Below are positions 1 through 60,159 of a stretch of 64,000 nt of DNA, piece after piece (the stretch's first letter is position 1; each line of letters starts with the position of its first letter). The stretch spans positions 7,626,001 through 7,690,000 of the forward strand of contig CM069876.1 in NCBI GenBank assembly GCA_036172665.1, in the 5' to 3' direction. A program made the position numbers and the translations under genes. The DNA is from Prosopocoilus inquinatus. Its lineage: Eukaryota > Arthropoda > Insecta > Coleoptera > Lucanidae. Under the pieces are notes generated by a model. That model did not search any database and was not told where the DNA came from. It saw only the letters and a program-made list of their open reading frames with translations.

Positions 1-28
1 CAAATCGTTTTTGATTGCAGTGAGAACC

Positions 29-93
29 TCGAGCAGCCTCTGGACAGCTGTTTCAGCCCTGCTTGGGGCTTCTTCAGCAGAAACGTAGCTCGA
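29..93 (-). ncRNA. Type I hammerhead self-cleaving ribozyme, unit 1
   Basis: Read on the minus strand, the core is CTGAAGA, then a perfect 5-bp stem II (AGCCC/GGGCT) with a 6-nt loop, then GAAA. A very short stem III (ACA/TGT around GC) follows, then the GTC cleavage triplet. Stem I is open-ended: CTG/CAG next to the core, an internal loop, then TCGAG/CTCGA. All invariant nucleotides (C3, U4, G5, A6, G8, A9, G12, A13, A14) are present, with A at the free position 7. Predicted cleavage lies between plus-strand positions 43 and 42. The tiny palindromic stem III is typical of retroelement hammerheads that work best as dimers. Confidence 0.88.
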
Positions 94-340
94 CATTCCC
101 ACTGCAGACCAAAAACGACTTGCCCAATTTATTCGCAAATGCGATGTAAGAATGATGAACATATAAAATAGCGACATCTTACTATCGCTTTTTGACCTAA
201 CATTGCAGTAGGATAGACAAATTGAAGCGGGATTTGCTCCTAATGAGTCCCCCATGCAAGGCGGCCATGCTTGCTGTCAAAGCATATTGAAAGATTTTAG
301 AAAAATTTTGTGCAAATCGTTTCTGATTGCAGTGAGAACC

Positions 341-405
341 TCGAGCAGCCTCTGGACAGCTGTTTCAGCCCTGCTTGGGGCTTCTTCAGCAGAAACGTAG
401 CTCGA
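341..405 (-). ncRNA. Type I hammerhead self-cleaving ribozyme, unit 2
   Basis: This is an identical motif exactly 312 bp after the unit 1 ribozyme, with the same core, stem II and GTC site. Cleavage of a minus-strand transcript at the two sites would release a 312-nt monomer whose ends can be rejoined by the same ribozyme. Confidence 0.88.
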
Positions 406-624
406 CATTCCCACTGCAGACCAAAAACGACTTGCCCAATTTATTCGCAAATGCGATGTAAGAATGATGAACATATAAAATAGCGACATCTTACTATCAC
501 TTTTTGACCTAACATTGCAGTAGGATAGACAAATTGAAGCGGGATTTGCTCCTAATGAGTCCCCCATGCAAGGCGGCCATGCTTGCTGTCAAAGCATAAT
601 GATAGATTTTAGAAAAATTTTGTG

Positions 625-860
625 CAAATCGTTTTTGATTGCAGTGAGAACCTCGAGCAGCCTCTGGACAGCTGTTTCAGCCCTGCTTGGGGCAATCAAA
701 AACGATTTGCACAAAATTTTTCTAAAATCTTTCATTATGTTTTGACAGCAAGCATGGCCGCCTTGCATGGGGGGCTCATTAGGAGCAAATCCCGCTTCAA
801 TTTGTCTATCCTACTGCAATGTTAGGTCAAAAAGCGATAGTAAGATGTCGCTATTTTATA
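625..860. repeat. Third retrozyme unit, cut in the ribozyme and joined to an inverted body
   Basis: Positions 625-692 repeat the start of the unit in minus orientation. At about 692/693, inside the ribozyme stem II loop, the sequence switches to the plus-orientation body (caatcaaaaacgatttgc onward) and runs to 860. The ribozyme here (653-692) is only a 3' half and cannot fold alone. The last bases match the body end at a cgctattttata motif, after which unique AT-rich DNA begins. This head-to-head junction recurs in form at two other loci. Confidence 0.8.
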
Positions 861-1251
861 GGAAAAAATAATGTTCTGTTTCTGAGTTTCAAAAAATCTT
901 CTTAAAAGTTTTGAATGTATTAAAGCTCTCAAAAAGTTATACAGAGAAAACGATTAAAAGCTCAGACAAATTGAAAATCCAAAAGTTCAAAAGTTGTCAG
1001 TTCTGTTACTAATTTATCTGTAAAAATTATTCTGGGAAGAACGTTAACTCTAACTTTAGAAAGTATTTACTTAATTTAATTTTATACAGGAAGGGTCTAC
1101 TAGTATACGTATATTGGTAAGTACGCTTTACAGGTCGTTGAAAATGAATAAATGGTAACATTCGATAACTAAAACGAACTATACAAACAATACAAAATCA
1201 GTCTTGGCTATACTTTCGGTTCAACCGAACTTTATTATTTTAAAAATCTGG
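861..1251. other. AT-rich spacer, nothing recognised
   Basis: No long open frame, terminal repeat or RNA motif is visible between the tandem array and the next diverged copy. Confidence 0.5.
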
Positions 1252-1486
1252 TTGCAAATCGCTTTTGATTGTAGTGAAAAACTCGAGCAGCCTCTGTACG
1301 ACTGTTTCAGCCCTGTTTGGGGCTTCATCAGCAGAAACGTAGCTCGAATTTTTTTCGTTTGACAGCAAACATGACCGCCTTGCACGGGGGACTTATTATG
1401 TAGCAAACCCACTTCAATTTGTCTATCCTACCGCAAGGGTCAAGTCAAAAAGCGATCGTAGGATGTCGCTGTTTTATCTGTTCATC
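1252..1486. repeat. Solo retrozyme-like copy with opposed ribozyme and body
   Basis: This diverged single copy begins with ttgcaaatcg and ends near ctgttcat. The ribozyme is on the minus strand, while the following body (from gacagcaaacatgaccgcc) is in plus orientation, the reverse of the tandem units. The body is recognisable by the caatttgtctatcctac and gtcaaaaagcgat blocks. It looks like an old insertion. No clear target-site duplication was seen. Confidence 0.72.
1283..1347 (-). ncRNA. Type I hammerhead ribozyme, diverged copy
   Basis: The minus strand reads CTGATGA, a perfect AGCCC/GGGCT stem II with a CAAACA loop, GAAA, a 2-bp stem III, and GTA at the cleavage position. Stem I CTG/CAG and TCGAG/CTCGA are intact. 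Compared with the tandem units it differs at position 7 (T for A) and at the cleavage nucleotide (A for C), both of which hammerheads allow. Stem III is altered (CAGTCGTA), so activity is less certain. Confidence 0.78.
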
Positions 1487-1915: not shown

Positions 1916-2202
1916 CATGCTGAGTGTTTGGAAATTGCTAGTACAAAAAAAGACTGTGGCATGTCGAAGTGCTAAGAAATACAAGAAATTAAATTTTCTT
2001 TTTCCATAAAATAATACCATGTCCGTCAACTCATTATTTGTCTAAGCGGCATTTACTTCGGTAATAATAATAATGTACCGAGTTGTGTGTAATTTTCATC
2101 TCGAAAACCAATGGATTTTTATTAGAATTTTTTTTGCCGATGACTTTAAGTCACCATCATCAACTACCATTTTTTTTGTACTAGCAATTTCCAAACACCC
2201 TG
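1916..2202. mobile_element. MITE with gtgtttggaaattgctagtac inverted repeats
   Basis: A left arm gtgtttggaaattgctag is matched in inverted orientation by ctagcaatttccaaacac at the right end, about 290 bp apart. The right end is CACCCTG followed by TA, as in Tc1/mariner-type MITEs; the left end is slightly degraded. There is no coding capacity inside. Confidence 0.7.
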
Positions 2203-3059
2203 TATAAAAAAAAATTAAGTCAACAAAGGATCCAAAAATAAAAGAAAATTACAAGATAAAATAAAATCTGATGGTAACAAAAAAAAAAAAAAAACGAAAA
2301 TGAAAGATTAACAATTTTAAGAAAATTGTATGAACAACTTTATTCAATAATAATAACCAAAAATTTGCTTTTAGCAAAACAACAGAGAGCTTCTGTAAAA
2401 AAACATAACTTAGGGTAAAACATACTTGTAATTAAAAGTCATGGGATAAAGAATTACAGTCACACAAAATTGTGATATTTCCAAATTATTAAAAAAAAAT
2501 AAATAAAATTTAAAAAAGTAAAATGCGATGCTTTTTGTATAATTTTGTATAATAATTATTATTTCTACTAGAATTTGCATTACTTTGTTATATCTTTTAA
2601 ATTTTATTATGTGAGGGCTTTGAGTTATTTGTGTTTTAAGATTTATTTCGCATAGTTTTATAAACTGCAAAGAGCTGTCTATTTATTTATGATGATATTT
2701 TATTTATAAATCGATGGTTAAAGCACAAAACCTGGTAAGTAAGTTTAGCATTATTTTACAAGAAACATAAAAAAACTCTCTAAACTTTACAAGATAAAAG
2801 AGTTTTTTTCCTAAATTTCGCTTACCTCGAAAGATTACAGATTATAAAGACTTGATAAGAGCGCTAGTAATAAATCAATTTTCTTTGTGCCTTAAATAAA
2901 AAGGACTTAGTTTTGTGGTTTTGATACATGCAGTATTACATAAACACCTAGACATGTGAGACAGTACACTATAAGGGATAAGAGTACTTTTAAAATAATA
3001 GTACAATACACCCAAAAATCTACGGCGATTATGATTCTGATTGTCTGCAGTTGTTACAT
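2203..3059. other. AT-rich spacer with homopolymer runs
   Basis: This stretch contains A-runs near 2280 and 2485 and no recognisable gene. The 86-codon minus-strand open frame at 2410-2670 is low-complexity and matches nothing known to me. Confidence 0.5.
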
Positions 3060-5376: not shown

Positions 5377-6578
5377 TTGACGTAACTATGTACATAGGTT
5401 AAAATGATTGTCCTACAACAAACCTCATTCTTTTAAGGATCTTTTCGACCATGCGACCAGAGTAAGAGTCATTCAACTGTCGGATTTTCCAAATAACGGG
5501 ACACTATGATAATATTTAAACACCGCATCCTTTTTAATCCTACATATTTCATATTTAAATTCACATTTATATTTTTTCTACCATCATTGACGAGTCACGA
5601 AAATATAAATGAATATCTCGCGATTAACATAATAATCTCTTATTCTTCTTTTTTACATCTGCATCAATAATCATTTAACATTTAACATCAATAAAATATT
5701 TTTACCATTTTTAAACATAATGCAGCTGTTAATTAGACGCCTCAAATCGTTGATTATAGGAAATGTAAACAATTCTTAGAATTTCCAGTACTATCGTGTG
5801 CTTAAGGTTAATAGGTGATTCACGTCTGTATACACTCGTTTAATTTTACCATAACCGTTTTTTTTTGCGATAGATGTAACTGTAAATCCGAGAATAGCAG
5901 GAATGTACTCATCTACTCATTGTTCTACAGTCTACAGCCTCGGTTTTATACATAATTCTCAGTAATTGTAATTAATTGACGTCAGTCAAATGAATGCATG
6001 CACACACAAAAAAATCGAGGCACACACGCAGAAAAAGTAGACACCAGGTATGTATTGTACAGTGATTCATACTAATGGGTTCTCTCATCTCTGACATGAT
6101 CAACAAAAAAAATGCGTCATCCGCAATGTTCTAAACGTGTAAATAGTGCGTAATTCTGACTGGATTAACAAGATAAATTTCAGCAATGGGACAGGAGCAG
6201 CTCATGGTTTATGTAGGTTACCGAATGTAATTTGATAACTGACGTCGCGTCGGTGATAAACTAGTTTGTTACTTAACGACATGCCTACGTAACATTAAGA
6301 GAATTTGGACCAAAAGTGTGCCAAATTCGAACTCGAAAGGTTTGGTAATTATTTATTAATATTCCATCAAGACCTATCGTTTTCAGAGAAGAATTTTGTC
6401 GATAATGTCCTGTAAGACTTTTCCAAATCAAGAATTTTGGAATTTCTCTTGTCGGAAAGGTATACTTCATAGAAAAATTACTTCTAATATTATCACATAA
6501 CAGATTATTTTTAAAATTTTTAATTTGAGTACGCCACTTTTACAAACTAACAGTTAAAGTAAGCTTTTAGTAAATTTT
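5377..6578. other. Unassigned AT-rich DNA
   Basis: Nothing was recognised in this 1.2-kb stretch beyond simple AT-rich sequence. The 61-codon minus frame at 6285-6470 has no family resemblance. Confidence 0.45.
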
Positions 6579-6735
6579 GTTGTCAGTCGTTTTTGATAGC
6601 AGTGAAAACCTGTAGCAGCCTCTCTACAGCTGTTTCAGCCTTATTTGGGGCTTCTTCAGCAGAAACGTAGCTCGAAATTTCCACTGCGAACCAAAAACGA
6701 CTTTACCAATTTATTTGCAGTTGCGATGTAATAGT
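6579..6735 (-). repeat. Truncated retrozyme-like copy
   Basis: The ribozyme and the adjacent body start are in the same minus orientation, as in the tandem units. The copy stops after gcgatgtaatagtgac, so most of the body is missing. It is the most diverged of the family in this window. Confidence 0.7.
6611..6675 (-). ncRNA. Degenerate hammerhead ribozyme
   Basis: The core CTGAAGA and GAAA are retained, but stem II has an unpaired position (AGCCC against AGGCT). The base pair next to the cleavage site is lost (GTA then GAG), and distal stem I has decayed (tgtag in place of tcgag). It is probably inactive, but it helps date the family. Confidence 0.65.
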
Positions 6736-7121
6736 GACCTATTAAGCTTTTAATGAATGAACCAGGCCTTAATTAATTCAATTTGAATTATCTGACAATC
6801 TGACGATTTAAATCAAAATGTCAGTTATCTTATCAGAATTGCCAACAACCTTTATCAAAATTATTGTTTACTCCAATTAAAAATCTTAAAAATGACTCGT
6901 TATATTAAGTACTCACAACTGTAGATATTTAAAAGACATGAAACTATATATTTTAGCAAAAAAAAATTAAAAAATGGTTAATTAAAATATTTAAAAAGAC
7001 GTTTAACTTGAAAATCAACAAATGTAGCTACTATTAACATTAAAACTGGAAACGTAATTTTTGGAAAATGATCATCATTTCGACGACAAATACTTATTCT
7101 ATTTCTTACAGTGTGTGTTTT

Positions 7122-15944: not shown

Positions 15945-16108
15945 TAAGTAAGAAAGAAAGAGAAAAGCAAAAACTAATAAGATCCAGAGCACAAGAAGAC
16001 AGAAAAACTGGAAAAACAGTCAAGATAGGGTTCAACAAACTAACTATCGAAGGAGAAGAATGGAGCTGGGATATGAGTAATGAAAAATTAATAAAAACAA
16101 AAAACTAA
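15945..16108 (+). pseudogene. LINE ORF1-type tail fragment
   Basis: Translation from about 15945 gives a highly basic stretch with GKTVKIGFNKLTIEGEEWSW followed by a stop at 16106-16108. This short lysine-rich tail ends just upstream of the endonuclease frame. It resembles the end of a LINE first ORF, but the rest of that ORF is absent or unrecognisable. Function is inferred from position. Confidence 0.5.
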
Positions 16109-16124
16109 ACAAATACTTAAGACA

Positions 16125-17200
16125 ATGAAAATGACTGACGACTTGTCAAAGAAAAAGGAAAAAGACAATGTAAATGGAACGGAGAAACAAAATAAAATAA
16201 AAACAAGAACAAAGAAAATAACTGAGAAAGACAAAATCAAGAATAAGATAGAGAAGATTAACAGAAGAGAAAACATATTAAGATTGGGAACATGGAATGT
16301 CCAAACGACGCTGACAGCTGGTAAGATGAAAGAAATAGCAGAAGAAATGAGGAAATACGAAATAAAAATTTTAGCTCTTCAAGAAACGAGGTGGAAAACA
16401 CAAGGTAAAATTGATAAGGAAAACTTTACGTTATATTACTCGGGTGAAAACAAGCAGGGCAGAAATAGAACAGCCTTTATGATCAATAAACAAATAAGAG
16501 AAAAGGTAATTAAATTTGAAGCAATCGGTGTTCTACAAACGACTAGAAAATAAACAAGCTAATATATCTATAATAAATTGATACGCGCCTACAGAAGCCG
16601 CAGATAACAAAGAAAAGCAAGAATTCTACTAAAACCCAGAAAAGATCTGCGGTAATGTACCTAGAAATGATATACTGGTGATCCTAGGAGATTTTAATGC
16701 GAAGATTGGGAAAGAGAATTATAATACTGATGTGGCAGGCAAAGAAACTATTCACGATACAACTAATGATAATTGAATTAGGTTATGTAACTTGGCTTCA
16801 TCGACTAATACATTTATCGTCAGTACAAAATTTCGACATGAAAACAACATAAGATAACATGGATCTTACCAAGTACGGTAGACGGGAACCAGATAGACCA
16901 CATATTACTTTCAAAAAAGTGCACCAGAATAGTACGTGACACTAGATCTTACAGAGGTGCCAATGTTGATACGGACCACATATTATTAATATCAAAAATT
17001 AAAATTAAAATAATTAGAAATAAATATAATAATAAGAGAATACAATGTGATATCAAAAAACTGAAGACAGAAGAAACATAAAGAATTCTCAACAACTGTG
17101 CGGATCAAGCTAAACAAGCCTGAAGAAAAAGAGCTTGAAATTGAGTGGATGAATATAAAAGAAGCTATAATTGAAGCAGCAGAGAAAACCATAGGATGAA
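16125..17200 (+). pseudogene. LINE endonuclease domain, broken
   Basis: The frame at 16125-16553 carries RLGTWNVQT (catalytic Asn strand) and LALQETRW (catalytic Glu). After a frame break, GDFNAKIG lies near 16687 and TDHILLISK (terminal Asp-His pair) near 16970. These are the ordered motifs of the EEP endonuclease that nicks target DNA for target-primed reverse transcription. At least two stops or frameshifts separate the parts. A lysine-rich leader precedes the domain. Confidence 0.8.
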
Positions 17201-17217
17201 GAACACCAGAAAAAACA

Positions 17218-18725
17218 AAAGAATGGTTCCATGAAGAATGTCAAAATATGAGAGAAAGAAAAACACATGCAAGAAGAAAGTGGTTAGAAACAGGAAACGA
17301 GCAAGACCTAATTGAATACAGAAACAAGTTTTTTAAAAGGAAAAAACTGGATATCAGACCAAATGCAAGAACTAGAAAGAGACCACAAAGATAACAAGAA
17401 GCTATTCCAATATGTAAAGAAAAACACTGGCACTAAGAAAGCAACAGGGAAAATAAATAACAGTGACTGGGAAAGATATTTTACGAGACAGTACAACATA
17501 GTAGAAATGGAAGAAGACACAGAAGAAGAAACTGAAACAAGAACCCACGAAGAAGACGCACCTACTAATGAAGAATTTATGGAGGTGGTCAAACAACTCA
17601 AATCAAATAAAGCAGCAGGACCAAATGAAATTAATAATGAACTGATACAAAATGGAGGAGAAGGGCTACTAAAGCGAATTTATAAAGTAATTGTCAAAAT
17701 CTGGACAGAATAAAAGATGCCAACAGACTAGGAAAATGGACGAATAACACCAATTCTCAAAAAAGGAGACCCAGCGGACTGCAATAACTACAGGGCAATC
17801 GTGTTACTAAATACCACGTACAAGATATTGACTTCAATAATAAGAAACCGCCTAAGTAAGTACATTGAAGAAAAACTAGGTGAATATCAGCAAGGATTTA
17901 GAAGAGGAAGGTCTACAATTGACGCAATACATGCGTTGACACAAATTATTGAAAAAGTTACGAGCACGATACTGAGCAATATATTATTTTCATAGACTTT
18001 AAACAAGCCTTTGACAGTGTTTACAGACGCCAACTTGTAAAACATATGGAAAATATGAAAATACCAAAAAAACTTATCAGCTTAACGAAGATGACGATGA
18101 AAAATTCCAGAGCGAAAGTTAGTACAACTCGTGGAGAAACAGGACACATCGATATAAAGGTAGGCGTGAGATAAGGGGATAGTTTGTCGACGGTGCTGTT
18201 CAATATTGCGCTAGAAGGAGTCATTAAAAGTTCAGGGCTGAATAGGACGATCACGCAAAGCTCCACACAGATTATAGGACATGCAGACGACTTAGCACTT
18301 ACAGCAAGAGATAAACAAAACCTGAAAGAAGCAATAGAGTGTTTAGCAAGAGAACCAGAGATCAGAGGTCTAAAAATCAACCAAGATAAAACAAAATATA
18401 TGATAAGCTCTAGAAAGCAAAATAGTAAGGAAGATCTGAAAACAAGGACATATCATTTGCAAAAAGTTGAATACTTTAAATACTTAGGTGTGACTGTAAA
18501 CGGAAGAAACAATAGAAGTATAGAAATAAATGAAAGAATTAAAGCCGGAAATAAAGTATACTGGAAATATCACATACTGTTGAAAGACAGTAACCTTACT
18601 AAAGGAACAAAAATGAAAATATATAGAGGAGTAATTAGACCAGTAATAACATATGCAGCTGAAACAACGAGTCTGACAAACAATGACGAAGAAAAACTGA
18701 GAATTATAGAGATGAGAATTTAAGA
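17218..18725 (+). pseudogene. LINE reverse transcriptase domain, broken
   Basis: Fragments run in order: 17312-17713 with SNKAAGPNEINNELIQNGGE (RT motif 1 region); 17801-17995 with LNTTYKIL and GEYQQGFRRGRST; a frame-broken FKQAFDSVYRR near 18000; and 18184-18723 with IGHADDLALTA. The catalytic box reads HADD where YADD is usual; both aspartates are kept. Further on, KTKYM and YFKYLGVTVN mark the thumb boundary. Frameshifts near 17330, 17715 and 17985 and an in-frame stop near 18175 show it is inactive. Confidence 0.85.
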
Positions 18726-24419: not shown

Positions 24420-26951
24420 CAGATATAGAGAAACGCAGCTAAGTTTGCAGTTACGTAGTTAGTGACGTATTTCGTACCAATTCAATGAAAGCAAAATACA
24501 ATAAATTATTTGAGCATTTAACATACAGAATTTAATGCATTTGTATAGCGTTGGTAAATAAGTTTGACATTTACTGCAGCAATTTATTCTTATTTAAGTA
24601 ACAATGAAATAAATAAATAAAAACGAATGTAATATTATGTTTGAGGGTTGGAATCCTGATTATACGTTTACATATCGGCCGTTCGTGCGACTTCGTGATT
24701 TTGACAATTGTGGTTATGGTATTTGAGCAACTATTTGAGCGCACAAGTTTCTTAAATTATATTCGTTTTCTTATTGTTTCGTGTCAGTTCTTCTTAGGAC
24801 TAAAATGCCAAAACCACTGCATAGCCAATCCAAGGAATTGGTTGCCTCTTTGATTAAATATTTTGAGAGAGAAAAGGTTAACGGTGGACCTTTATTGACC
24901 GTAGGTAGTGTTTGTGAGGTTTGTGTACATCTGTTATTTTATTGCGTATTATTAATGCTAATCTTATTGACAGAGAGTTGCTGATGCATTGAATCTCAGT
25001 CTACGAACAGTACATTCCATATCGAAAGCCGTGAAAGAGAATATACCTTTACAAAGCCCTCCTAAAAAACGTTCACGTACAAAACCTATTTGCGACATTA
25101 GTGAAGCAGAACAGGGGGCAATACGAGATGGAATTTATGATATGTACAGATCAAGTAAGCTTTTGTGTTCAGTGCAAGTATAAAAATGTTTCGTTATATT
25201 TATTTGCAGAGCAACACGTTACACGTCATTCACTTTTGTTGTATCTGAAGGAACGGCAAATTTTTAATGGATCAGTAGATTAATTAGGTAGAATCTTGAA
25301 AAAGATTGGATTTAAATACAAGAAAGATGATTCTCGCCGAGCCTTAATGGAGCTTCAACATGTTGCTTCAGCAAGAATCGATTTTTTAAAATCGTATGTA
25401 CAGAATTTAAACTCTGGAAAATCCTGGCAACCAGTATATGTAGATGAAACATGGATTTTTGAGAATGGTACAGTGACACGGTCTTGGCAAGATGACAGCC
25501 ATAAGAGTGTAAAAAGAATGAAATGTGATGGCAAAAGGTTAGTTAATCGATATTAAATTTCCTGTATTTGCATGAATCATAAATTGTTTTCAGATTTATT
25601 GTACTACATGCAGGCAACATTAACGGTTTTATTGAAGGAGCTTCATTAGTATTTTCGTCAAATTCAAAGAACCCTGATTATCATGGAGAAATGAATGAAA
25701 ATAACTTCTTAAAATGGTTTGAAAACCAGTTACTAAAAAATTTAGAAGAACCTTCTTTGATAATTATGGACAATGCCAGTTATCACAGCAGTTTATGTGA
25801 CAAAAGTCCTAATAGTTCTTGGTCAAAGGCAAGAATAAAGGAATGGCTTCAGCAGCACAACGTTCAAGTAAACGATTGTTTGCTAAAACTGGAACTGTTG
25901 GAATTAGTGTCACGGTAATTGGCAATTATTACAAATTATTCAGTAACATTAGTGATGGTCTTGTTTTAGCAATAAGCCTGCGAAAACATACAAAGTTGAC
26001 AAATTAGCTTTAGAATATGGACATCGTGTACTAAGATTGCCACCATATCACTGCATATTTAACCCCATAGAAAACATTTGGGGTATTTGTAAAACTTATT
26101 ACAACAGACATGTTGGACGAGATGGATATGGTCAGGTAAAAGCTGTGGATATGTGGAAGGAGGCATTGAACCATGTGACTCCAGAAATGTGGGCGAATAC
26201 TATCACTCATACTGATAATGTCATTAAAAAATGGTGGGACAGAGAAGTAGTATTTGACACCGAAGACGTTCATCCGTTAATTATATCGGTAAATAATGAT
26301 TCCAGCACTAGTAGCGAAGAGAGTGAGAGTGATTAAATATGCAACGTTTACTTTCTTTGTATCTGTAAATCTTTTCTTAAATGTATTATATCGAAGCACT
26401 TCAGATTCCATATTATATTATAATAGCTACTAATTTTTGTATATTTTCTTTTGTTTACAAATAAAAGCTTTGTTCTTTTATATTTGAACATATCGTGTAC
26501 TTTTTGATGACAATAAATATATCATAAAAAGCCAATGAACTCCAAACTGTTTCAAAATTTTATTCACTATGAAAAAAAAAATAAATTTAAATTCTTGAAA
26601 TTTTTTTCTACGACTGCAGTTTTTAGACTTAATAGAGTTAAAAGAAAATGTAAAACAATAAAACTTCAGGTTATTTACATTTAATAATTTGATATAACCA
26701 GAACTTTATGATTGCACAAAGATTTACCCAACATAAATTACCTAGACTAATTTGGAACATGCATACATTTACTCAAAGTTTATATTTCACCTCATTATAA
26801 CATTAATTAAGTGTATTTGCATAGATAATTAATAAAAAAAATAAATATGTATAAAATTCAAATAATTATGTCGCTTCAGAACTACTATAAACGTACTAGG
26901 CATTCACGTTCGTGACGTCACTGCAAACTTAGCTGCTTCTGTCTATAACTG
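24420..26951 (+). mobile_element. Nearly intact DDE transposon (IS630/Tc1-mariner superfamily, DD81E)
   Basis: The terminal inverted repeats share gcagctaagtttgcagt: left about 24420-24480, right about 26895-26951. They enclose one transposase gene and about 560 bp of 3' AT-rich sequence. The ends read cagatatagag and, in reverse, cagttatagac. The exact first base and target duplication could not be fixed by eye. One premature stop is the only clear lesion, so this is a young insertion next to the decayed elements around it. Confidence 0.78.
24805..26336 (+). pseudogene. Five-exon DDE transposase with one in-frame stop
   Basis: Exons: 24805-24918, 24974-25154, 25210-25537, 25594-25914, 25970-26336. 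All four introns are 55-56 nt, begin GT and end AG, and each junction restores the frame. Order: an N-terminal helix-turn-helix region (ELVASLIKYF ... VADALNLSLRTV) and a basic linker PPKKRSRTKP. Then come catalytic Asp in YVDETWIF, second Asp in IIMDNASYH, and Glu in NPIENIWG. The spacing from second Asp to Glu is 81 residues, far above the 34 of classical Tc1. It ends with an acidic serine-rich tail and TAA. The only lesion is TAA at 25281-25283, in the frame of exon 3. A poly-A signal, aataaa, follows near 26460. The spacing is close to the DD82E (Sailor) group as I recall it. Confidence 0.85.
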
Positions 26952-27386: not shown

Positions 27387-28082
27387 TATGAGAGAATTAT
27401 TTTTTTCTTATTCTTGAGATATTAATAAAAATGTAAAAAAAATCGATTTTCTTTTTCTCTTTGTATCTCTTTTATCATAAATAATTTGGAAATTCTGATT
27501 TAACTTTCTACAGGCACTTTTTGATTCTGCTTTGAATACGAGCAACAGAATTGAAGTCAAACGTTTCGTCTTTCTGCGACCATCGTCAGTTTCGATCTTT
27601 TAAATACAACTTATGTCTTTTTATTCTATTCGATAGAATTCTTTCTCCCGATTATAACGGTATATCACACTTAATAGTTGATATTAATCTGAAGCTTAAA
27701 TAATACATATTTTTATATGAAAATTTTATGTAATACATAATTTCAAATTTTTAGTTCATTTTCTTAGCTACAGTGTAAATTATAATAAACTATTTAAAGT
27801 TTTCCTGTATCGTTATTTTAATAATGCATTGCACTTACGAAAATGAATTTTTACCGACAAATATCTAGTGATTCTAATCGTTGAGACTGTCTAATGTGAA
27901 ACCGAGCTTAAACTTTAATAACTTTGGTGTTTTTCTAACGGTAACAAATAGATTAAAAGTTATTACGGATTTTCAATTTATTTTCCTATAGTTATTCCGA
28001 AAGCTCGGTTGAACTTTAAAAGAATTTTAATTTCCCCTTTCGACTGCAGCCCAGTTACAGAATTTTCGTTATTTCTTATCTA
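27387..28082. other. Unassigned AT-rich DNA
   Basis: No gene or terminal repeat recognised. Confidence 0.45.
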
Positions 28083-30129: not shown

Positions 30130-30643
30130 TTACTGTTTTTTGTGGTATTCTATAAAACAATTTGGAATGCAGAGGGTAATATCACATTTTTGGCAAAATG
30201 TCCTTGGCTTGCTAGTGCAATTTTGTTGTTGACATCTGCGCTGTTTTTCACGTTTGCCAACGTTATGATTTTTAGAGTCAAATCTAACATCATCAGGAAT
30301 GTTCCCTCGTGAGCTACTTGGAACACTCATTGGTCGTCCTCGCCTAATTCTTGTTCCATAACCAATCTTAAAATATGAGTAAGCAACTTGTCTACGGAAT
30401 TCCTTGATTGACATCTTCTGAGGGTGTGTCATGTTATAATGTTTCCATTTACAACAGCCATGTCTACTATACGTGTAAATAAACACCAATACCATTTTTT
30501 TCCTCTAACCTAAATATGGTGTTTTTCTAAAAGCCAATCGTGATGGTCAACTCCACCCATATGTTTATTATAATTCCTAACAATAGATGGTTGAGGTACT
30601 AAAATACGTTGTTTTTGCTGTCGACTCCAGCGAGGAACTTGTA
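30130..30643 (-). pseudogene. piggyBac transposase, C-terminal part
   Basis: Reading on from the mariner insert, the minus strand gives VPRWSRQQKQRILVPQPSIV and the third catalytic Asp in NKHMGGVDHHD. A TAG follows at 30512-30510, then RGKKWYWCLFTRIVDMAVVN. A frameshift near 30440 leads into FRRQVAYSYFKIGYG and the cysteine-rich end: CQQQNC, FCQKC, LCIPNCFIEYH. This zinc-binding tail is typical of piggyBac transposases. The last codon is at about 30133. Confidence 0.88.
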
Positions 30644-32353
30644 AAATGCGTTCAATTAAATCCGTTATCGAGATGGCTTGGAACTTGCTTTTATTTTATA
30701 CCGGCATGTCGTAGCTTAGTACGTATATTGAATAACTGCGAACTGTCAGCGGTGTTTACTGTCAAAGGTTTTGTTTACATTTTCAAAGTATTGTGTTCCG
30801 TTATTTGTGTTGTTGCTTTAATTCCTTTAAAAAAACAGTTCTTTTGGGAACTAAACTGCCGAGAAATGTTTACTACTGAACATAGAGTGTTTATGTTAGA
30901 ATCGTATTTTCGAAATGGACGTAAAATTGACGGTAATTGGGTATATTCTAGACCAGATAGTTTAGAAGAGTTCAGAGCTAAATTTCCGGAGTTGATTATT
31001 GACTACAACCATTTTAATGCTACGCTGGATCGATGTGTTACGCTATTTCGTGAAACTGGAGGTGTCTTAAGAAAGGAAGGTTCTGGTCGTCCTCTTAAAC
31101 GAAGTCAACAGGTTATCGATGATGGACGAGAAATCATGCAAAATAACCCAAAAACAACTGTTCGACAATTAGCGCAACAAATGGAAGTTTCAGTTGGAAC
31201 ATCTCATGCGATGTTAAGAAAGGATTTACATTTATATCCTTATCGACTAACAGCAATTCACGAATTGAAAGACATTGATATACCGCAGAGGTTAGAATTT
31301 TGCCAATGGTTTATAAACACTTTAAATAATGATGACGATACCCTACGGATGACTTTCTTTACTGATGAATCGTGGTTCTACTTGTCTGGATATGTAAATT
31401 CGCAGAATATGAGATCTTGGAATTCAGAAAATCCTCATATGTTTGTTGAACGTCCATTGCATCCTGAAAAAATTGGTTTATGGGCCGCTATAAGTGGCAG
31501 ATGATTAATTGGACCAATTTTCTTTGAAGGTGTTTATAAATATATAAATCATAAAAATAATCTTTAAACTTATATTCGCATGTTAATTTTTAGGTACGCT
31601 TAATGCAACAAGATACCGAAATGAAATTTTAAATGAATTTTTGGAGAACGTTCACGATGATGAGTTAGAAGGTGGTTACTTTCAACAAGATGGTGCAACA
31701 CCCCACTGTACAGCAGAAACATTGGCCATGCTTCATGAATTTTATGATGACCGAATTATAAGTCGCAACACTCCAACACCATTTCCTCCAAGGTCGTGCG
31801 ATTTAACACCTTGTGATTATTTTTTATGGCCTTACCTTAAAAATTCAATATTTGCAACCCCTATGAACAATCTAAAAGAACTACAGCACCGAATAAGGCA
31901 AAAATTTGAAGAAATTAATCAAAATCCGAACTTTGTAGAAAATGTAGTCGTGAGTTCCCTTAAACGTAGAGTTTTAAAATGTTATGAAGTAGGTGGTGGG
32001 CATTTTAAGCACCTTTTGTAAAAAATAAATGTTTTCGTTAATTGCATTCTCTTATTCAATTTATAGAAAATCATAAATGGGTATAAAAAGTTGGGTTATG
32101 TTTATTATAATCATGTGGCTTAAGTTAACGCGACTTCGTAAAATTTGCATTTGACATAAGCCAAAAGAACTGTTTTTTAATGGAATTAAAGCGACAACAC
32201 AAACAACGGAACACAATACCTCGAAAATGTAAACAAAACCTTTGACAGTAAACACCGCTGACAGTTCGCAGTTATTCAATATACGTACTAAGCTACGACG
32301 TGCCGGTATAAAATTCCAAGCCATCTCGATAACGGATTTAATTGAAAGCATTT
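30644..32353 (+). mobile_element. IS630/Tc1-mariner-superfamily element nested in piggyBac
   Basis: The element is flanked by TA at 30642-30643 and 32354-32355. The inverted repeats begin aaatgcgttcaattaaatcc and aaatgctttcaattaaatcc and extend for about 200 bp, far longer than the ~30 bp usual in mariner. Removing the element and one TA restores the piggyBac frame exactly. The transposase is on the plus strand, opposite to the host element. At 1710 bp it is complete in structure. Confidence 0.92.
30866..32021 (+). pseudogene. Two-exon transposase with DUF4817-type N-terminus, one stop
   Basis: The start is the ATG at 30866 (MFTTEHRVFMLESYFRNG). An N-terminal helix-turn-helix follows (EHRVFMLESYF ... 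FRETGGVLRKEGSGRP), then a second one (TVRQLAQQMEVSVGTSHAML). The catalytic Asp residues lie in FFTDESWFYLSGYVNSQN, FQQDGATPH and RSCDLTPCDYFLW, with 36 residues between the second and third. A 64-nt GT-AG intron at 31530-31593 restores frame as FFEG|TLNATRYRN. The only lesion is TGA at 31502-31504 directly before LIGPIFFEG. The protein ends at 32019 with VGGGHFKHLL. The family is common in insects, often labelled DUF4817 or Tc3-like; I do not assign a subgroup. Confidence 0.85.
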
Positions 32354-32355
32354 TA

Positions 32356-33615
32356 CCGTTGGAAGTATTGTATCAAAGTTCGTTGCTAGGGAAACACATT
32401 TGCTGTCATTCCATTTACAAATTAAAATGTGATTTGTTTTATCAAACTGCCAGTCATAGGAACCCCGCGATTCTTTTTCAAGTATCTTGGATGATTTTAT
32501 AGGACACTTTGCTGTTCTGTTCTCTCTTATTGTACCAGTAGCTCTAAAGCCCTGTTCTTTCAGCTGTTGTATTAGAGAGTAACTTGTGAAAAAGTTGTCG
32601 AAATAAACAATGTGACTTTTAGGGTCGTCAATTACAGATAACATACTTGTAACAACTTTCGAGCCCAATGGCGCACTAGCGGTTTCAGACTTTTGTTTAG
32701 CTTCTTTGCCACAGTAAAGAGAAAAGTTATAACAATATCCATTGTCTCCACATAAAGCCCATAACTTGAAGCCGAATCTTATGGGTTTAGATCTTATAAA
32801 TTGTTTCAATGAATGCTGACCATAATATTTTACAATCATCTCATCTACAGATAAGTGTTCGTGAAAAATACCCCACTTCCTAAAATTCTTATTGATAATA
32901 TCTACCAATGGTCTAATTTTGAAAGATTTGTCGTTTTTGTTATTATTAGCTTGCAAATTGAATTAGCGATTTTATTTCACAGTATGCAGTGCGACTAAAT
33001 GCATCTTTTACAGTTTGAATTCCTAAATCTTCTTGTTCCGACCAATAATCTCTTTCGCTAGGTAGTTGATGATATCCAGAGAAAATTAGGAATCCAATAA
33101 AAATTTTAATTTCATCAGCAGTTATTGAAAAATGTTGTTTATTTTTTTTGAATTGTTGCATATTTTATTGTTTCAGTTACGATAAGATTGTAAACTCTTT
33201 GATCAAAAAGTTGTTCAAATATTTCCAGAGGTGTGGCTGCTGACAATAGCTCTTTTATTTGTTCAAAATTTTCCTGAAACCGTGAACTAAAATTATTATT
33301 GTCATAGTATGGTTCTACCTTGTCCCAATCTGGGAGATCAGTAGGCATTTTTTTGGCAAAAACTGACAGTGGTAAATTATCTTCTTCATCGGAAGAAGAT
33401 TCTAAACTTTGTTCAGAGTTTTGAGAGCGAACTATAACTTCGGCTCCACCAGGAATCTCTGTTACAATAGGAACAGCTGTGTCATCATCATAGATCTCAT
33501 CTTCATCAGTAAGTTCATCTACTTCTGGTGGTAGTGCCAAGATATCAGCTTCGATTTCTTCGGAGTTAAAGTAGTCCCAAGCTTCTTCTAAAATTTTGAA
33601 AAATTTTCTACTCAT
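32356..33615 (-). pseudogene. piggyBac transposase, N-terminal and central part
   Basis: The likely start is the ATG at 33615 (MSRKFFKILEEAWDYF), followed by an acidic stretch with LTDEDEIYDDD and a SSSDEED cluster, as in piggyBac N-termini. The DDE core follows: catalytic Asp in LSVDEMIVKYYGQHS, then KPIRFGFKLWALC, then the second Asp in VYFDNFFTSYSL. Two frameshifts interrupt it, near 33150 (in an A-run) and near 32950. It is cut at 32354 by the mariner-superfamily insertion. The open frame extending up to 33729 is upstream sequence read through, not protein. Confidence 0.88.
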
Positions 33616-46000: not shown

Positions 46001-47114
46001 CTCGAATTGAAAAATTCCTTCAGTTCATTTTATAAGACTTTGTCCTTAAATAGTTTTAATGAAACAAGTATGTAGATACTACTACGACATTCCTAAGTAA
46101 ATATTTACCTATGTATCTAAAATCGATTACCTACAATAAAGAATAACCGTTGTCCTAACATATTTAACCACGTTCCCAAACCTAAGTTACTGTGAAGCAT
46201 TCCATTCCATACATAAGAATACAAAGAACATTACTGAGATTCCACGAAACAGGTAAAGAACATTTTTATACTTACTCATCTAGAAAATGCATCGAGGATT
46301 ACTCATTCACACCACAGGTTAAAAACCGTGTGAAGTATTTTGCAGAAATGCAGAGCAAGGTAAATAGTCAAATGTTCTTTCAGAAAAAAATCCTTTAATT
46401 GAAAAGAATTTAATACTACAGTATATATACTCATATATTGCGATTAATTACACTTTGACTAATTTATAGTCACATGCATTATGCATTTTCATGTTGCTGT
46501 TCGACAACAAAAATATGAAATTATTTAGCGAAACTGGATCAACGTTTTCAGTTATTCCACATCATAGTATGTTTACTTACTGCATTTGCCATTCTAATGC
46601 AACTACCATTTCTAATTACCTATGTCATAATCAGACCTTGCGTATCGATACTTATAAATTAAATTGCAATTAACTGTTTACGCGCTACTTTCATACGCTT
46701 GCGTTCCACGTAACAAAACTTAATGATTACGTTTGAGAAACCTATTTTCAATTTCACTTTTAATAACCGTGCTGAGCTTTCCACTTAGAGACTTTTGACA
46801 TACAACAAATCTTATTCTTAATATGCATCTTAATCGATCCTTAATAGCACTGTGGAATTTTTTACTTCAAAGCAATTTCACTTTTCGTACTGTTTTATTG
46901 ATAATGGTTTGGTTGTTTGCTGCTTCCTAGTCTTCTTACTATCTGTTTCACCTTTCTCGTGAAATATTTCATTTTGTTTTTTTTTTATATTGGTACTATC
47001 GACTTCTATACAGCGTGATTCAAGTAACTCGTTCATTAAAAGTTTCCAGATCTTATTTTGCAACTGTAGTACACCAAAAACTATTTATTTATATATTTTC
47101 TACTTTCATTATTA
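43072..47114. other. 4-kb AT-rich stretch without recognised elements
   Basis: I see no terminal repeat, ribozyme or transposase here. The open frames at 43269-43513, 45562-45816, 46192-46398 and 46878-47063 have no family resemblance. The sequence at 45590-45760 is less AT-rich and open on both strands, but nothing could be identified. Confidence 0.4.
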
Positions 47115-47540
47115 CATATAAAATAGCGACATCTTACTATCGCTTTTTGACCTAACATTGCAGTAGGATAGACAAATTGAAGCGGGATTTGCTCCTAATG
47201 AGTCCCCCATGCAAGGCGGCCATGCTTGCTGTCAAAGCATTATCCTGTCAAAGCATGGCCGCCTTGCATGGGGGACTCATTAGGAGCAAATCCCGCTTCA
47301 ATTTGTCTATCCTACTGCAATGTTAGGTCAAAAAGCGATAGTAAGATGTCGCTATTTTATATGTTCATCATTCTTACATCGCATTTGCGAATAAATTGGG
47401 CAAGTCGTTTTTGGTCTGCAGTGGGAATGTCGAGCTACGTTTCTGCTGAAGAAGCCCCAAGCAGGGCTGAAACAGCTGTCCAGAGGCTGCTCGAGGTTTT
47501 CATTGCAATCAAGAACGATTTGCACAAAATTTTTCTAAAT
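47115..47540 (+). repeat. Palindromic retrozyme-like copy
   Basis: A minus-orientation body fragment (47115-47240) is followed after a 6-base gap by a plus-orientation body plus ribozyme (47247-47540). The two body pieces form a near-perfect inverted repeat of about 120 bp per arm. The plus part matches the tandem units almost base for base, so it is a recent insertion or conversion product. The open frame at 47226-47567 is a shadow of the ribozyme region, not a protein. Confidence 0.85.
47430..47494 (+). ncRNA. Type I hammerhead self-cleaving ribozyme (plus strand)
   Basis: The core CTGAAGA starts at 47446. Stem II is AGCCC/GGGCT, then GAAA, then ACAGCTGT as a mini stem III, with the GTC site ending at 47480, so cleavage is 47480/47481. 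Stem I is CTG/CAG plus TCGAG (47430-47434) with CTCGA (47490-47494). It is identical in core to the tandem units at 29-93 and 341-405. A single ribozyme can cleave only once, so this locus alone gives no unit-length monomer. Confidence 0.88.
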
Positions 47541-47569
47541 TCATTATTACAGTCTATAAATACTTAGTT

Positions 47570-52860: not shown

Positions 52861-54739
52861 CTGATATTTTTTCATTTATAGGTAGATCGTCAAAAAGTAA
52901 CAACATTATTAACTAAAATCAATCTGAATGAGAATGCATGAATGGCAGAGTTGCATTATTTTTGGTCATTGCTGTACATCCTATATAAAATTACTCGTAA
53001 TATGTAATAGCAACTTTACAGAATTTAATCGTTTAATCAATAAACTAGAATCAAATAGATAAAACGAACACTCAAGTTATGTATATGTGGTTGGTTCACA
53101 CTGTACGTAATTAATTACTCCAACTTGCCGATAAAAACCGTGTGATCTTGCTTTTGCAAGCGTTTTTTTTAATCGTGCGAGAACGTGATGTTACTTACAG
53201 TCTAAATGTTTCTTTTTTGGGCCTATCATTTCTTCGGTCGTGGCTTTGCATACGGATTTCGCCAATCCCTGTCCGGCTAAACTGTGTTTTGCCGCTAAAA
53301 TCCTGTCGTTCAACGTTTGTCCCGCCATTCTGCCGGTCATTTCGGCACTTGATTATGAGCGAACTAAACTAATTAAAGAGCAACACCCGCACAGCCACAA
53401 GAACACCTGTATGAATTTATAACGCCCCTCTGAATGTGTATATGACAGTTAACCGATACACGATGACAACCTCCAACGTCAAGAGTATCAGTGCAACTAT
53501 TGGTTACGTTGACTAATCAAACGACACCGAGACAAGACGAACTCATTCGTTAACGTTCGTTCTTTTTTCTTATCCTTTTATTTCAAGGATAACGATTTAT
53601 TTCACAGGACAATTAACTATTCATAGAAATCAGAAATTATGCTTGTTATTCTACAGTAAAAGTTTATTTTTCTGCTCTAACAAAGATAACATTAGACCTC
53701 GACGAAAGCGCACCGAAGAATTCTCGTTTTTTGTGTACGAAGTGCTGGACGAATTTGAACTGTCAAATTCTTAACCTCAACTCCACCCATTATTTTCTAA
53801 GTTATTTTCAATCACACTGTCAAAATTTTAAGTTAATTGGGCAGAAAAACCATAATGACTACAAAAATTAAACTATACATAGGCCGTAAGGTAAGGTAAA
53901 ATTATCTCAATTTTTATTAATTTCCAAACATTTCTCTATTTTTCGGCAGCTTATTATAGATGTCGCTCTGGCGGGTGGTTGTTGCAAATGTCACGTTACT
54001 TTTTGCTTTAAATTCCTATTGGAACTTGCAATGAAGTGTTGTTTTTTTCCTTTAAACTGTTTATACTGGATTACTCTTTTCAACTTTGAATTTATTAATT
54101 TGAAAGCAGAAGTAAGAAATAGCTTTTTACTTTGAATGTAAATGTGTATCTGTACATGATCTGTACCTTTAGTCTTGAGGTTATGTCACGTTATAAACGT
54201 TTAAATTGTGAATTAAATGGAAATGTTTAAATACCTACTTATATTGTAAAAGTGCAGTTTAATGAGTAAACCTGTTTTCAGAAAGTAAGGTAGATAGATA
54301 GTAACTGTAACCGAGCTCTGTTACTTGGGCTAAGTTCCAGTATCTCATTGCAAGTTTACATATGGTAATGTACAAGACAAAATAAATTTAATGCCGTTTA
54401 TAAAATGTAAAAAAAGTAAATAAGAATAATTTCTTATGTGAATTTATTGTTAATCGCTATTTACTTTTAGCATTGACCCCGAAATGCAATATGTACCTAG
54501 TCAATGCATCTAATTATGTTTTAAGACCTTCATAGATAATCACTTTTTTCTCCACTGGTCCTGTTTTATATTCCACAAGAATTACCATTTACATATTAAC
54601 AATTAAATTTCCAGAAGTTTGCAGTAATATTAAATTTCCTCATTAATAATAATAATGTTATGATATTGTACCAATTTTAGGGCTAACTTTGTATAATTGC
54701 ATAAATTCTTTTTCTTTTAATTATGTATTAAAAACTTTG
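52861..54739. other. Unassigned AT-rich DNA
   Basis: No family was recognised. Overlapping plus frames at 53142-53422 lie in a less AT-rich patch but do not resemble any protein I know. Confidence 0.4.
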
Positions 54740-55000
54740 TTGCAAATCGTTTTTAATTGCAGTTAAAACCTCGAGCAGCCTCTGTACAGCTGTTTCAGCC
54801 CTGTTTGGGGCTTCGTCAGCAAAGACGTAGCTCGACATTCCCGATTTGCAACAACATTTTTAAAACTCATCATGCTTTGACAGCAAGCATGGCCGCCTTG
54901 CATGGGGGACTTATTAGGTAGCAAATCCGCTTCAATTTGTCTATTCTACTGCAATGTCAGGTCAAAAAGATGTAAGACGTCGGTATTTTATCTGTTCATT
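54740..55000. repeat. Solo retrozyme-like copy with opposed ribozyme and body
   Basis: It has the same layout as 1252-1486: it begins ttgcaaatcg, has the ribozyme on the minus strand, then switches to the plus-orientation body (atgctttgacagcaagcatg onward) and ends at ctgttcat. Here the ribozyme is enclosed by ttgcaaatcg/cgatttgcaa, an inverted repeat that may explain the flip. Confidence 0.76.
54771..54835 (-). ncRNA. Type I hammerhead ribozyme, diverged copy
   Basis: The minus strand reads CTGACGA, AGCCC/GGGCT with a CAAACA loop, GAAA, ACAGCTGT, and GTA at the cleavage site. Stem I keeps G-C and T-A next to the core with one wobble, plus TCGAG/CTCGA. Position 7 is C here, against A or T elsewhere. 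The fold is intact and probably active. Confidence 0.82.
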
Positions 55001-55358
55001 TGATTATGTAGTTCAAATTACTTTGCCGTATTCTGTGATCTGTACCTATACCTCCGATTATTTCGTTAAAGCCAATACTTCTGTAAGTTGTAGTAAATGA
55101 AGTATTTTATCCAACACTTGTTTATTATGAGGTAATAATAAAGCTGATTTTGAATATATTATGAGGTCTGTAAAACACTAGTGGAATTACGAACCCATAA
55201 TTAAATTGTTATTCAAAATCGGCATTATGACTTTATAATAAACAGGTGTCAGATAAATTATGTATTACACTCGTGCCTTAACAATAGTAAGCCACTTGTA
55301 TAATAAATAGCTATTCTATTTACTGATAAAATTATAACATGATAAGAATAAGAAACTA
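55001..55358. other. AT-rich DNA with an imperfect inverted repeat
   Basis: The block taataaagctgattttgaata (about 55136) is inverted near 55208 (tattcaaaatcggcattatga), and ccaacacttgtttattatga (55110) with its complement near 55243. This is likely a small foldback of about 150 bp. Confidence 0.5.
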
Positions 55359-59385: not shown

Positions 59386-59692
59386 TCATTTAATGAAACT
59401 ACAAAATATATCGTTCAAATTTGCAAAATCTGTTCTTTTATTAATTGAATTATTACACATTTTTATTTTACACATTTCAATAAATCTACGTTTAAACGTG
59501 TTAGACTCCTGAAAAAGTATTTTAGCATTTTCAAAATCAAAAATATGTTTAGTTAAAAGTGAATGTTCTACTAACATTGAATGACTTTCATTCTTTTTTT
59601 GGATATAATATTTATGCTGATCTAACCTTTTTTTAAAATTTTGGCTAGTTTCACCTATATAAGCTGAGTTACAACTTTGACAAAACTTCTTA
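59386..59692 (-). pseudogene. Penelope-like element fragment: GIY-YIG endonuclease domain
   Basis: The minus frame reads CQSCNSAYIGETSQNFKKRL, then an HKYYI and a VEHSLLTKHIFDFENAKIL segment. It ends NSINKRTDFANLNDIFCSF. The pattern CxxC, a GIY-type YIGET..NF..R, EH....H..DF and a C-terminal NxINKxxDFxNLN is the endonuclease end of Penelope-like retroelements, which normally follows a reverse transcriptase. The reverse transcriptase is absent: 5' truncation joins it at about 59692 to Tc1-like sequence. The first ~9 residues of the open frame (up to 59718) belong to that Tc1 sequence in another frame. The frame is uninterrupted over about 100 residues. Confidence 0.82.
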
Positions 59693-60159
59693 TGTAGTCC
59701 TGATTTAGATGGTTCCATTCTTCAGCTACTCTTTCAGCGAATTTATTTAAAGCTATTGCTGGAGGCTGGGTTGTACACAAAGAAAACCCGTTATGGTCCC
59801 AAACATGCTCAATTTTGACCCGAAATCTTATGTAAAAAGTCCTTGCACAAAAAATTTGAAAAATAATTCCAAATTTTCTTGTGCATGCAACAGTTCAGAA
59901 CCTAAGAGCAGTTTTTATTTTATTAAATATTCTTCATGAATATAAATAAATAAGCCACCCACATTTAAGAGTTAAATACCAAATGCCTATTGACTGCTTC
60001 ACATCTTGAGCAAAACTGAGAATACTGAAAATCTTCTTCGAAATATTAGACCGCAGAAAATTTTGTCTGGCAACCAAGAGCCGCATTTTGTAAGTACTTA
60101 TTGAAACCTATTAAAATTTTGTCTAATATGTCCAGCATTTCCAAATTACAACATTTTTT

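What the first reader, a model, noticed from the sequence alone, without database searches (positions are those of the whole stretch)
1..860. Tandem 312-bp units each carrying a type I hammerhead ribozyme: a probable animal retrozyme
Seen: units start at 1, 313 and 625 with exactly 312-bp spacing. Each of the two full units holds all invariant hammerhead nucleotides, a perfect stem II, a mini stem III and a GTC site. Known: retrozymes are non-autonomous retroelements with tandem hammerheads whose transcripts self-cleave to unit-length circles. Inference: minus-strand transcripts here would yield a 312-nt circular RNA. I do not know whether this family has been described for this genome.
Basis: partly seen in the sequence, partly recalled or inferred. 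Interest (0 to 1): 0.88.

Follow-up and report, generated by a model that had tools for sequence, protein, structure and literature searches.

The report
Two-ended retrozyme copied from RNA circles
The repeat is a mobile element built around a self-cutting RNA, and its copies across this animal genome suggest that both cut ends of the target DNA were extended by copying the same small, probably circular, RNA, in the same two-ended way as a known class of jumping gene living in that genome.

Summary
Two full 312-bp units (98.7% identical) each carry an intact type I hammerhead on the minus strand; a strict descriptor finds five hammerheads in the window and none in 200 shuffles. The third unit stops at unit base 69 and flips into an inverted arm.

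In the host genome (650 Mb) the finding is the end of one 1,504-bp element that starts 644 bp left of the window: 4.3 tandem units, a 169-bp inverted arm, a 12-bp target duplication. Of 40 two-armed copies tabulated, 35 have one outer end near unit 294 and the other near 155; one has 294 twice; four have an odd end. All 26 copies with an exact duplication of 10 bp or more follow the rule. Arms run up to 5.8 circuits and meet at scattered places with excess microhomology.

A Penelope-like element in the same genome follows the matching rule in 20 of 20 loci chosen as inverted pairs: one tailed and one untailed end, 11-17-bp duplications.

Verdict: an animal retrozyme family, supported. Most likely Penelope-type machinery extends both target strands on the retrozyme RNA from two fixed sites. 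Cleavage, circularity and the enzyme's identity are not shown directly.

The parts
1..624 (-). Two full 312-bp tandem retrozyme units of element A (RNA-sense strand is minus). This arm continues left of the window to G000:C8:7625357; its full length is 1,337 bp, 4.28 units
29..93 (-). Type I hammerhead ribozyme, unit 1; predicted cleavage between 43 and 42
341..405 (-). Type I hammerhead ribozyme, unit 2; predicted cleavage between 355 and 354
625..693 (-). Partial third unit (unit 1..69): only the 3' half of the hammerhead
692..860 (+). Inverted second arm of element A (unit 18 back to 162, 169 bp), 97% identical to unit 2 and 99% to the unit majority; 2-nt overlap at the junction
861..872 (.). 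Right copy of element A's 12-bp target site duplication GGAAAAAATAAT (left copy lies outside the window)
1245..1485 (-). Element B, older two-armed copy; hammerhead about 1283-1347 (GUA site); 15-bp duplication at 1230-1244 and 1486-1500
6570..6742 (-). Element E, older single-armed copy, unit ~291 to ~160; hammerhead about 6611-6675 with damaged stem I, fails the strict descriptor; 10-bp duplication at 6560-6569 and 6743-6752
47117..47539 (+). Element C, young two-armed copy; hammerhead about 47430-47494; 12-bp duplication at 47105-47116 and 47540-47551
54728..55002 (-). Element D, older two-armed copy; hammerhead about 54771-54835 (GUA site); 8-bp duplication at 54720-54727 and 55003-55010 (weak, about 0.04 by chance)
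59386..59721 (-). GIY-YIG endonuclease fragment of a Penelope-like type (relic; context, not part of the retrozyme)

Best explanation
This is a non-coding animal retrozyme. Minus-strand transcripts self-cleave at tandem hammerheads into 312-nt RNAs that are then most likely ligated into circles (inferred; reported for other animal retrozymes). A Penelope-type reverse transcriptase with GIY-YIG endonuclease cuts AT-rich target DNA on both strands about 12 bp apart. Each 3' overhang primes reverse transcription on the retrozyme RNA, one strand at unit ~294 and the other at unit ~155. The two cDNAs run for 0.1 to 5.8 circuits and are joined, often through short microhomology, giving a two-armed element whose both outer ends are reverse-transcription starts. 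Shown by sequence: the hammerhead, the two fixed ends, their one-of-each pairing, the target duplications, the scattered junctions, the multi-circuit arms, and the matching rule in paired copies of this genome's Penelope element. Inferred: cleavage, circularity, that the ends are reverse-transcription starts, which enzyme acts.
For: Hammerhead: 5 strict hits in the window, 0 in 200 shuffles; 81 of 89 hammerhead instances in the fetched loci keep the core, with core substitutions 9/979 against 204/6005 outside core and stems. Circular fold of the sense unit -110.9 kcal/mol against -75.5 (sd 5.1) for 200 shuffles; antisense -78.6. Ends: of 40 two-armed copies 35 are 294+155, 1 is 294+294, 4 have one odd end (35 of 36 classified, p = 1.1e-9 against equal odds). 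TSD: 26 of 44 elements have an exact repeat of 10 bp or more, 13 of them exactly 12 bp, and all 26 have one end of each kind; by the method, 20 of 45 reach 12 bp against none of 1,980 cross-element pairings (10 bp: 0.8%). Junctions: of 40, 27 overlap by 0-8 nt, and 18 of these 27 by 2 nt or more against 17% expected, p = 1.2e-8. Multi-circuit: 19 of 38 arms from 294 and 13 of 38 from 155 exceed 312 nt, longest 1,809; of 78 inner ends 1 lies by the cleavage site against 2.5 expected; by length 36 of 38 arms from 294 and 23 of 38 from 155 pass it. Penelope-like element: 20 of 20 loci chosen as inverted pairs have one tailed, one untailed end; TSD 11-17; RVT_1 and GIY-YIG in one frame. Print: a purified Penelope protein cleaves and extends both strands, starts at two internal sites, prefers AT-rich DNA (PMC11167929).
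Against: No RNA data: neither cleavage nor a circle is shown. The retrozyme RNA has no significant similarity to the 3' region of the one Penelope family examined. Its two start sites lie 139 nt apart, against about 39 in that Penelope element. Apparent TSDs are slightly shorter (mean 12.6 against 13.5, p = 0.04). The two start regions resemble each other no more than chance. No base-pair covariation in 54 hammerhead copies. 18 of 44 elements have no exact TSD of 10 bp. The 20 Penelope loci were chosen because their GIY-YIG hits come in inverted pairs; of 3 loci chosen as unpaired, 1 showed both end types and 2 only one end; of 4 unchosen copies of this family in 3.2-kb stretches (L051, L054, L057, L058) only L051 showed both. 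One search lists two tailed Penelope ends facing outward 1.7 kb apart on C2 (41413994- and 41415665+), which break the rule unless they are inner units of a tandem. Uncleaved concatemer RNA could also serve as a multi-unit template.
Confidence: 0.8

Rival explanations
1. Snap-back or self-priming: one cDNA is made by target priming, its 3' end folds back and copies itself, giving the inverted arm.
For: Self-priming, on an antisense template, was inferred in print for head-to-head Penelope copies in a rotifer (PMC3846280, passages). In element A the first arm does contain the sequence of the second.
Against: Snap-back would make the two outer ends the same or arbitrary; 35 of 40 two-armed copies have two different, fixed ends. 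In B, D and L010 one arm holds sequence that the other lacks.
Confidence: 0.07
2. Another non-LTR retrotransposon (a LINE of this genome) moves the retrozyme by twin priming.
For: LINE-like endonuclease and reverse transcriptase remnants lie in the window (16095-18723); LINE-1 twin priming makes inversions (recalled).
Against: LINE-1 inversions are a minority and start in an A-rich tail (recalled); here two-armed copies prevail, both starts are internal, and paired copies of the same genome's Penelope element show the same one-of-each rule. LINE copies of this genome were not examined.
Confidence: 0.1
3. The template is an uncleaved tandem transcript, not a circle; the ribozyme plays no part in mobility.
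For: In vitro, ribozyme mutants of the Anolis Penelope did not affect insertion, and unprocessed RNA was thought the main substrate (PMC11167929). Tandem arms could come from concatemers.
Against: Most genomic copies contain their own inverted junction, yet other copies do not carry it (read by eye; exceptions are the duplicate loci L026/L027, L035/L039, L045/L046 and a few complex copies); one 312-nt ring explains arms of up to 5.8 circuits. The ribozyme core is conserved.
Confidence: 0.25
4. A satellite or foldback DNA transposon that happens to contain a hammerhead.
For: Tandem units and inverted arms resemble satellites and foldback elements.
Against: Dispersed copies with about 12-bp target duplications, ends that are not inverted repeats of each other, different junctions in nearly every copy.
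Confidence: 0.03

Closest known systems
Animal non-LTR retrozymes (Cervera and de la Pena 2020, PMC7229834; abstract, passages and discussion seen)
   Same: Type I hammerhead with a 2-bp stem III and tetraloop; 170-400-nt unit in tandem; low GC; target duplications over 4 bp; non-coding; Penelope-like elements in the same genome.
   Different: Described as tandem repeats, from dimers to long arrays; 'inverted' has no occurrence in its main text. Here most dispersed copies tabulated are two-armed with two fixed end sites.
Penelope-like elements (Anolis PAc, PMC11167929, main text seen; rotifer Penelope, PMC3846280, passages seen)
   Same: Inverted terminal copies with a tail on one, target duplications (8-10 bp in the rotifer passages), AT-rich targets, both strands extended, two internal start sites.
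   Different: Encode a reverse transcriptase and GIY-YIG endonuclease; minimal hammerhead; sites about 39 nt apart here against 139 in the retrozyme; no sequence similarity found.
Plant LTR retrozymes (PMC4918200, listing only; features from passages of PMC7229834 and PMC7761336)
   Same: Non-autonomous elements with tandem hammerheads and a circular RNA stage.
   Different: Type III hammerheads, LTRs, primer binding site, 4-bp duplications; the ribozyme type and duplications differ here, and no LTR was seen.
LINE-1 twin priming (recalled)
   Same: Two cDNAs primed from the two target strands, joined inverted at microhomology.
   Different: Occasional in LINE-1 and starting in the A tail; here two-armed copies prevail, with two fixed internal starts and repeated circuits of the template.

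Membership tests
Animal non-LTR retrozyme | Canonical type I hammerhead with intact core | tested here: met
   below Rfam's gathering score (23.8 against 34 bits)
Animal non-LTR retrozyme | Head-to-tail units of 150-450 bp | tested here: met
   312 bp, arms up to 5.8 units
Animal non-LTR retrozyme | Low GC, non-coding, no LTR | tested here: met
   GC 43%; a 103-codon open frame occurs in 151 of 1,000 shuffles too, and indels are mostly not multiples of 3; absence of LTR, primer site and polypurine tract judged by eye only
Animal non-LTR retrozyme | Target duplications longer than 4 bp | tested here: met
   26 of 44 elements with exact repeats of 11-15 bp
Animal non-LTR retrozyme | Self-cleaves and is present as linear and circular RNA | not testable with these tools
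   needs RNA
Animal non-LTR retrozyme | Penelope-like elements in the same genome | tested here: met
Penelope-like element | Encodes reverse transcriptase and GIY-YIG endonuclease | tested here: not met
   the longest open stretch on the 312-nt circle is 103 codons, too short for the two domains
Penelope-type integration (works like) | Two distinct RNA start sites, one at each end of the insert | tested here: met
   35 of 40 two-armed copies, 26 of 26 with an exact TSD of 10 bp or more; Penelope 20 of 20 loci chosen as inverted pairs
Penelope-type integration (works like) | RNA start region similar to that of the resident Penelope | tested here: not met
   alignment no better than shuffles, one Penelope family tried
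Hammerhead ribozyme | Compensatory base changes in the stems | tested here: inconclusive
   96.8% of cells paired but no double change in 54 copies; the stems vary too little

The most novel reading that the evidence does not exclude
A Penelope reverse transcriptase dimer holds one RNA ring at two fixed places and extends both target strands at once, each subunit from its own site. Head-to-head two-ended inserts are then the normal product, for Penelope elements and for the ribozyme-made RNA circles that exploit them, and the old Penelope 'tail' marks the second start site.
Probability: 0.5. Interest if true: 0.85.

Novelty: new variant of a known kind. Interest (0 to 1): 0.74.

Why it matters
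How retrozymes move has been open. The defining animal paper calls Penelope elements a strong candidate and proposes copying of a primed circle (PMC7229834 discussion; its supplementary scheme was not seen). The Anolis Penelope paper says that steps after first-strand synthesis are yet to be validated. Here the genomic copies seem to record those steps: both target strands primed, two fixed sites, repeated circuits of a small template, end joining. That makes the question directly testable with one purified protein and a 312-nt RNA.

Tried and rejected
Rejected: a shared sequence motif at the two start sites (not above shuffles); similarity of retrozyme and Penelope 3' regions (not above shuffles); a coding role for the 103-codon open frame (151 of 1,000 shuffles have one as long; indels mostly not multiples of 3; substitutions 9.1, 6.9 and 9.1% by codon position, an uneven pattern that I did not explain); hammerhead covariation as proof (none); Rfam at gathering scores (no hit). 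Exact pattern scans found no relative in viral contigs or genome contigs; these hold viral and prokaryote sequence, so this says nothing about other animals. The search with the D copy did not complete.

Rows dropped before counts: L027 (same layout as L026), L045/L046 (a like pair with complex structure), the second piece in L047 (1543-1717), old pieces in L012 (489-597) and L026/L027 (1-298), a 49-bp piece in L048; L009, L014 and L042 were replaced by the longer L048, L049 and L050; L039 (same junction and flanks as L035) was dropped; L050b (an extra inner break) was left out of the 78 inner ends. Single-armed copies L017, L020b, L022 and E are outside the 40; L022 has a stub of about 16 inverted bases by eye. 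The retrozyme loci are those scored (40 of 109 first-look candidates) plus the window's. In 14 older loci (L079-L092) 9 show both arms and 5 one arm (read by eye; there the ends near 155 range from about unit 140 to 170).

The seventh stem I pair was mis-specified (C-C); one search uses the right six.

Full report
Observation. The window begins inside an array of 312-bp units. Units 1 and 2 are 98.7% identical. On the minus strand each full unit carries a type I hammerhead: stem I of 6 and 4 bp around an internal loop, CTGAAGA, a 5-bp stem II, GAAA, a 2-bp stem III with loop AGCU, and cleavage triplet GUC. Rfam's type I model matches with 23.8 bits, under its 34-bit threshold, which is why a whole-window scan at gathering scores is empty. 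A strict descriptor finds five hammerheads in the window and none in 200 shuffles.

What the finding missed. The third unit stops at unit base 69 and the sequence flips: 692-860 is an inverted copy of unit 18 to 162. Four further copies lie in the window (B, C, D, E); B, C and D are also two-armed. B, C and E have direct repeats of 15, 12 and 10 bp at their ends, each reached in at most 1.1% of 1,500 random placements; D has a weaker 8 bp (4%).

Genome. The window lies in a 650-Mb assembly. I fetched 39 loci around the scored matches and extended three. The element of the finding runs from C8:7625357 to 7626860, that is, from 644 bp left of the window to window base 860. It has a 1,337-bp arm of 4.28 units, a 169-bp inverted arm, and duplication GGAAAAAATAAT.

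The rule. Of 45 tabulated elements, 40 are two-armed after one duplicate is removed. In 35 of these 40 one outer end lies at unit 270-306 and the other at 135-175; one (L025) has two ends of the first kind; four have one end elsewhere. Exact target duplications of 10 bp or more occur in 26 of 44 elements (11 bp 2, 12 bp 13, 13 bp 5, 14 bp 5, 15 bp 1), and all 26 have one end of each kind. By the method, 20 of 45 reach 12 bp, against none of 1,980 pairings of left and right ends of different elements. The duplications are 83% AT against 68% for the window. Both start sites lie in stretches predicted unpaired in the circular RNA (0.77 and 0.65 against a mean of 0.34; 98th and 92nd percentile of 16-nt stretches).

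Template. Half of the arms starting at 294 (19 of 38) and 13 of 38 starting at 155 are longer than one unit; the longest is 1,809 nt. Inner ends (78, from 39 elements) are spread over the unit (KS p = 0.07) and do not collect at the cleavage site; judged by length, 36 of 38 arms from 294 and 23 of 38 from 155 pass it. So the template seems to have had no end at the cleavage site: a ligated circle or an uncleaved multimer. Of 40 inner junctions, 27 overlap by 0-8 nt, 18 of these by 2 nt or more against 17% expected; of the other 13, ten have 1-18 unmatched letters and three have overlaps of 10-40.

Ribozyme constraint. Of 89 hammerhead instances in these loci (many within one array, so not independent), 81 keep the core, and core positions changed 9 times in 979 against 204 in 6,005 outside core and stems. 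The variable core position N7 and the cleavage-site base do vary. There is no base-pair covariation. The sense circle folds far better than shuffles, and the antisense circle hardly better (-110.9 and -78.6 against -75.5, sd 5.1, for shuffles of the sense unit).

Penelope. A GIY-YIG search of the genome gave 150 scored of 2,232 candidates, most with the same score, many as inverted pairs about 0.3-4 kb apart. One frame (L058) has a reverse transcriptase and a GIY-YIG domain. In 20 loci chosen for such pairs, all 20 have one end with a tail of about 39 nt and one without, flanked by duplications of 11-17 bp. Three loci chosen as unpaired gave one with both ends and two with only one end seen; of four unchosen copies of the family in 3.2-kb stretches only L051 showed both. 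A search with the tailed strip listed 40 ends at 298-302 of the query; this ranking favours tailed ends and is no test of the rule, and it shows one outward-facing pair of tailed ends (C2:41413994- and 41415665+) that either breaks the rule or is the inside of a tandem. In print, the Anolis Penelope protein cleaves and extends both strands and starts at two internal sites that bound the tail (PMC11167929; section 'Main text' read), and rotifer Penelope copies have inverted pLTRs with a tail on one (PMC3846280; passages). The rotifer authors inferred self-priming; the one-of-each rule here fits priming of both strands better.

Family size. A search with the older copy E had 3,621 first-look candidates; the 40 scored gave 42 matches, E itself included. 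Of 14 of these fetched, 9 are two-armed. The family is therefore probably old and large, with a young subfamily of near-identical copies.

Literature. Listings for retrozyme + hammerhead + metazoan (16 papers), hammerhead ribozyme + Penelope-like (22, 20 listed), Penelope + twin priming + retrotransposon (3), retrozyme with inverted repeat or target site duplication (743 holding two of three terms, 12 listed), retrozyme + insect (8), retrozyme + Penelope + reverse transcription + priming (1), hammerhead + head-to-head + Penelope (0) showed no title or abstract start about two-ended retrozyme insertion; open-access papers only. In PMC7229834 I saw the abstract, passages and the discussion; in PMC7761336 passages.

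Mechanism and limits. Inferred chain: transcription, ribozyme cleavage, ligation, binding by a Penelope-type enzyme, nicks about 12 bp apart, priming of both strands at two sites, end joining. The DNA record supports the later steps; the first three rest on what is reported for other retrozymes. Which Penelope family acts is open, since the one examined shares no recognisable RNA sequence with the retrozyme and has slightly longer apparent duplications. That the host is an animal is inferred from its transposons; the species was not identified.

Noticed in passing
window 59386-59721 (-): GIY-YIG fragment of a Penelope-like type (Pfam E 4.1e-4, 21 bits, just below the 22.6 cut-off; one homologue at 2.4e-12); by eye, other transposon sequence replaces its upstream part.
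   Followed up: partly
window 1917-2205: About 290-bp element with 35-bp inverted ends (91%); related pieces (71-97%) flank a Penelope insertion in L062.
   Followed up: partly
window 52725-52776 (+) and 27534-27589 (-): Two further CTGACGA...CGAAACG stretches resembling degenerate or minimal hammerheads; they fail the strict descriptor.
   Followed up: partly
window 51383-51513: Two 65-bp tandem copies (98%), with a short piece repeated at 52617-52640.
   Followed up: partly
window 30587-31504 (+), 32288-32962 (-), 16095-18723 (+), 25583-26336 (+): Transposon remnants by Pfam: DUF4817 helix-turn-helix (just below cut-off), DDE_Tnp_1_7 (piggyBac-like, recalled), LINE-like endonuclease and reverse transcriptase, and weak DDE_3 pieces below cut-off.
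   Followed up: partly
genome, one search places: A very young Penelope-like family: most of the 150 scored GIY-YIG hits have identical scores, with open frames up to 788 codons.
   Followed up: partly
L035 and L039: Two loci on contig C5 share the same retrozyme junction and, in the bases shown on each side, the same flanks: a genomic duplication rather than two insertions.
   Followed up: partly
retrozyme unit, sense strand (for example window 277-588, -): 312 is divisible by 3, and one sense frame has a single stop per circle (103 open codons); not above chance, but substitutions are fewer at one codon position (6.9 against 9.1%).
   Followed up: partly
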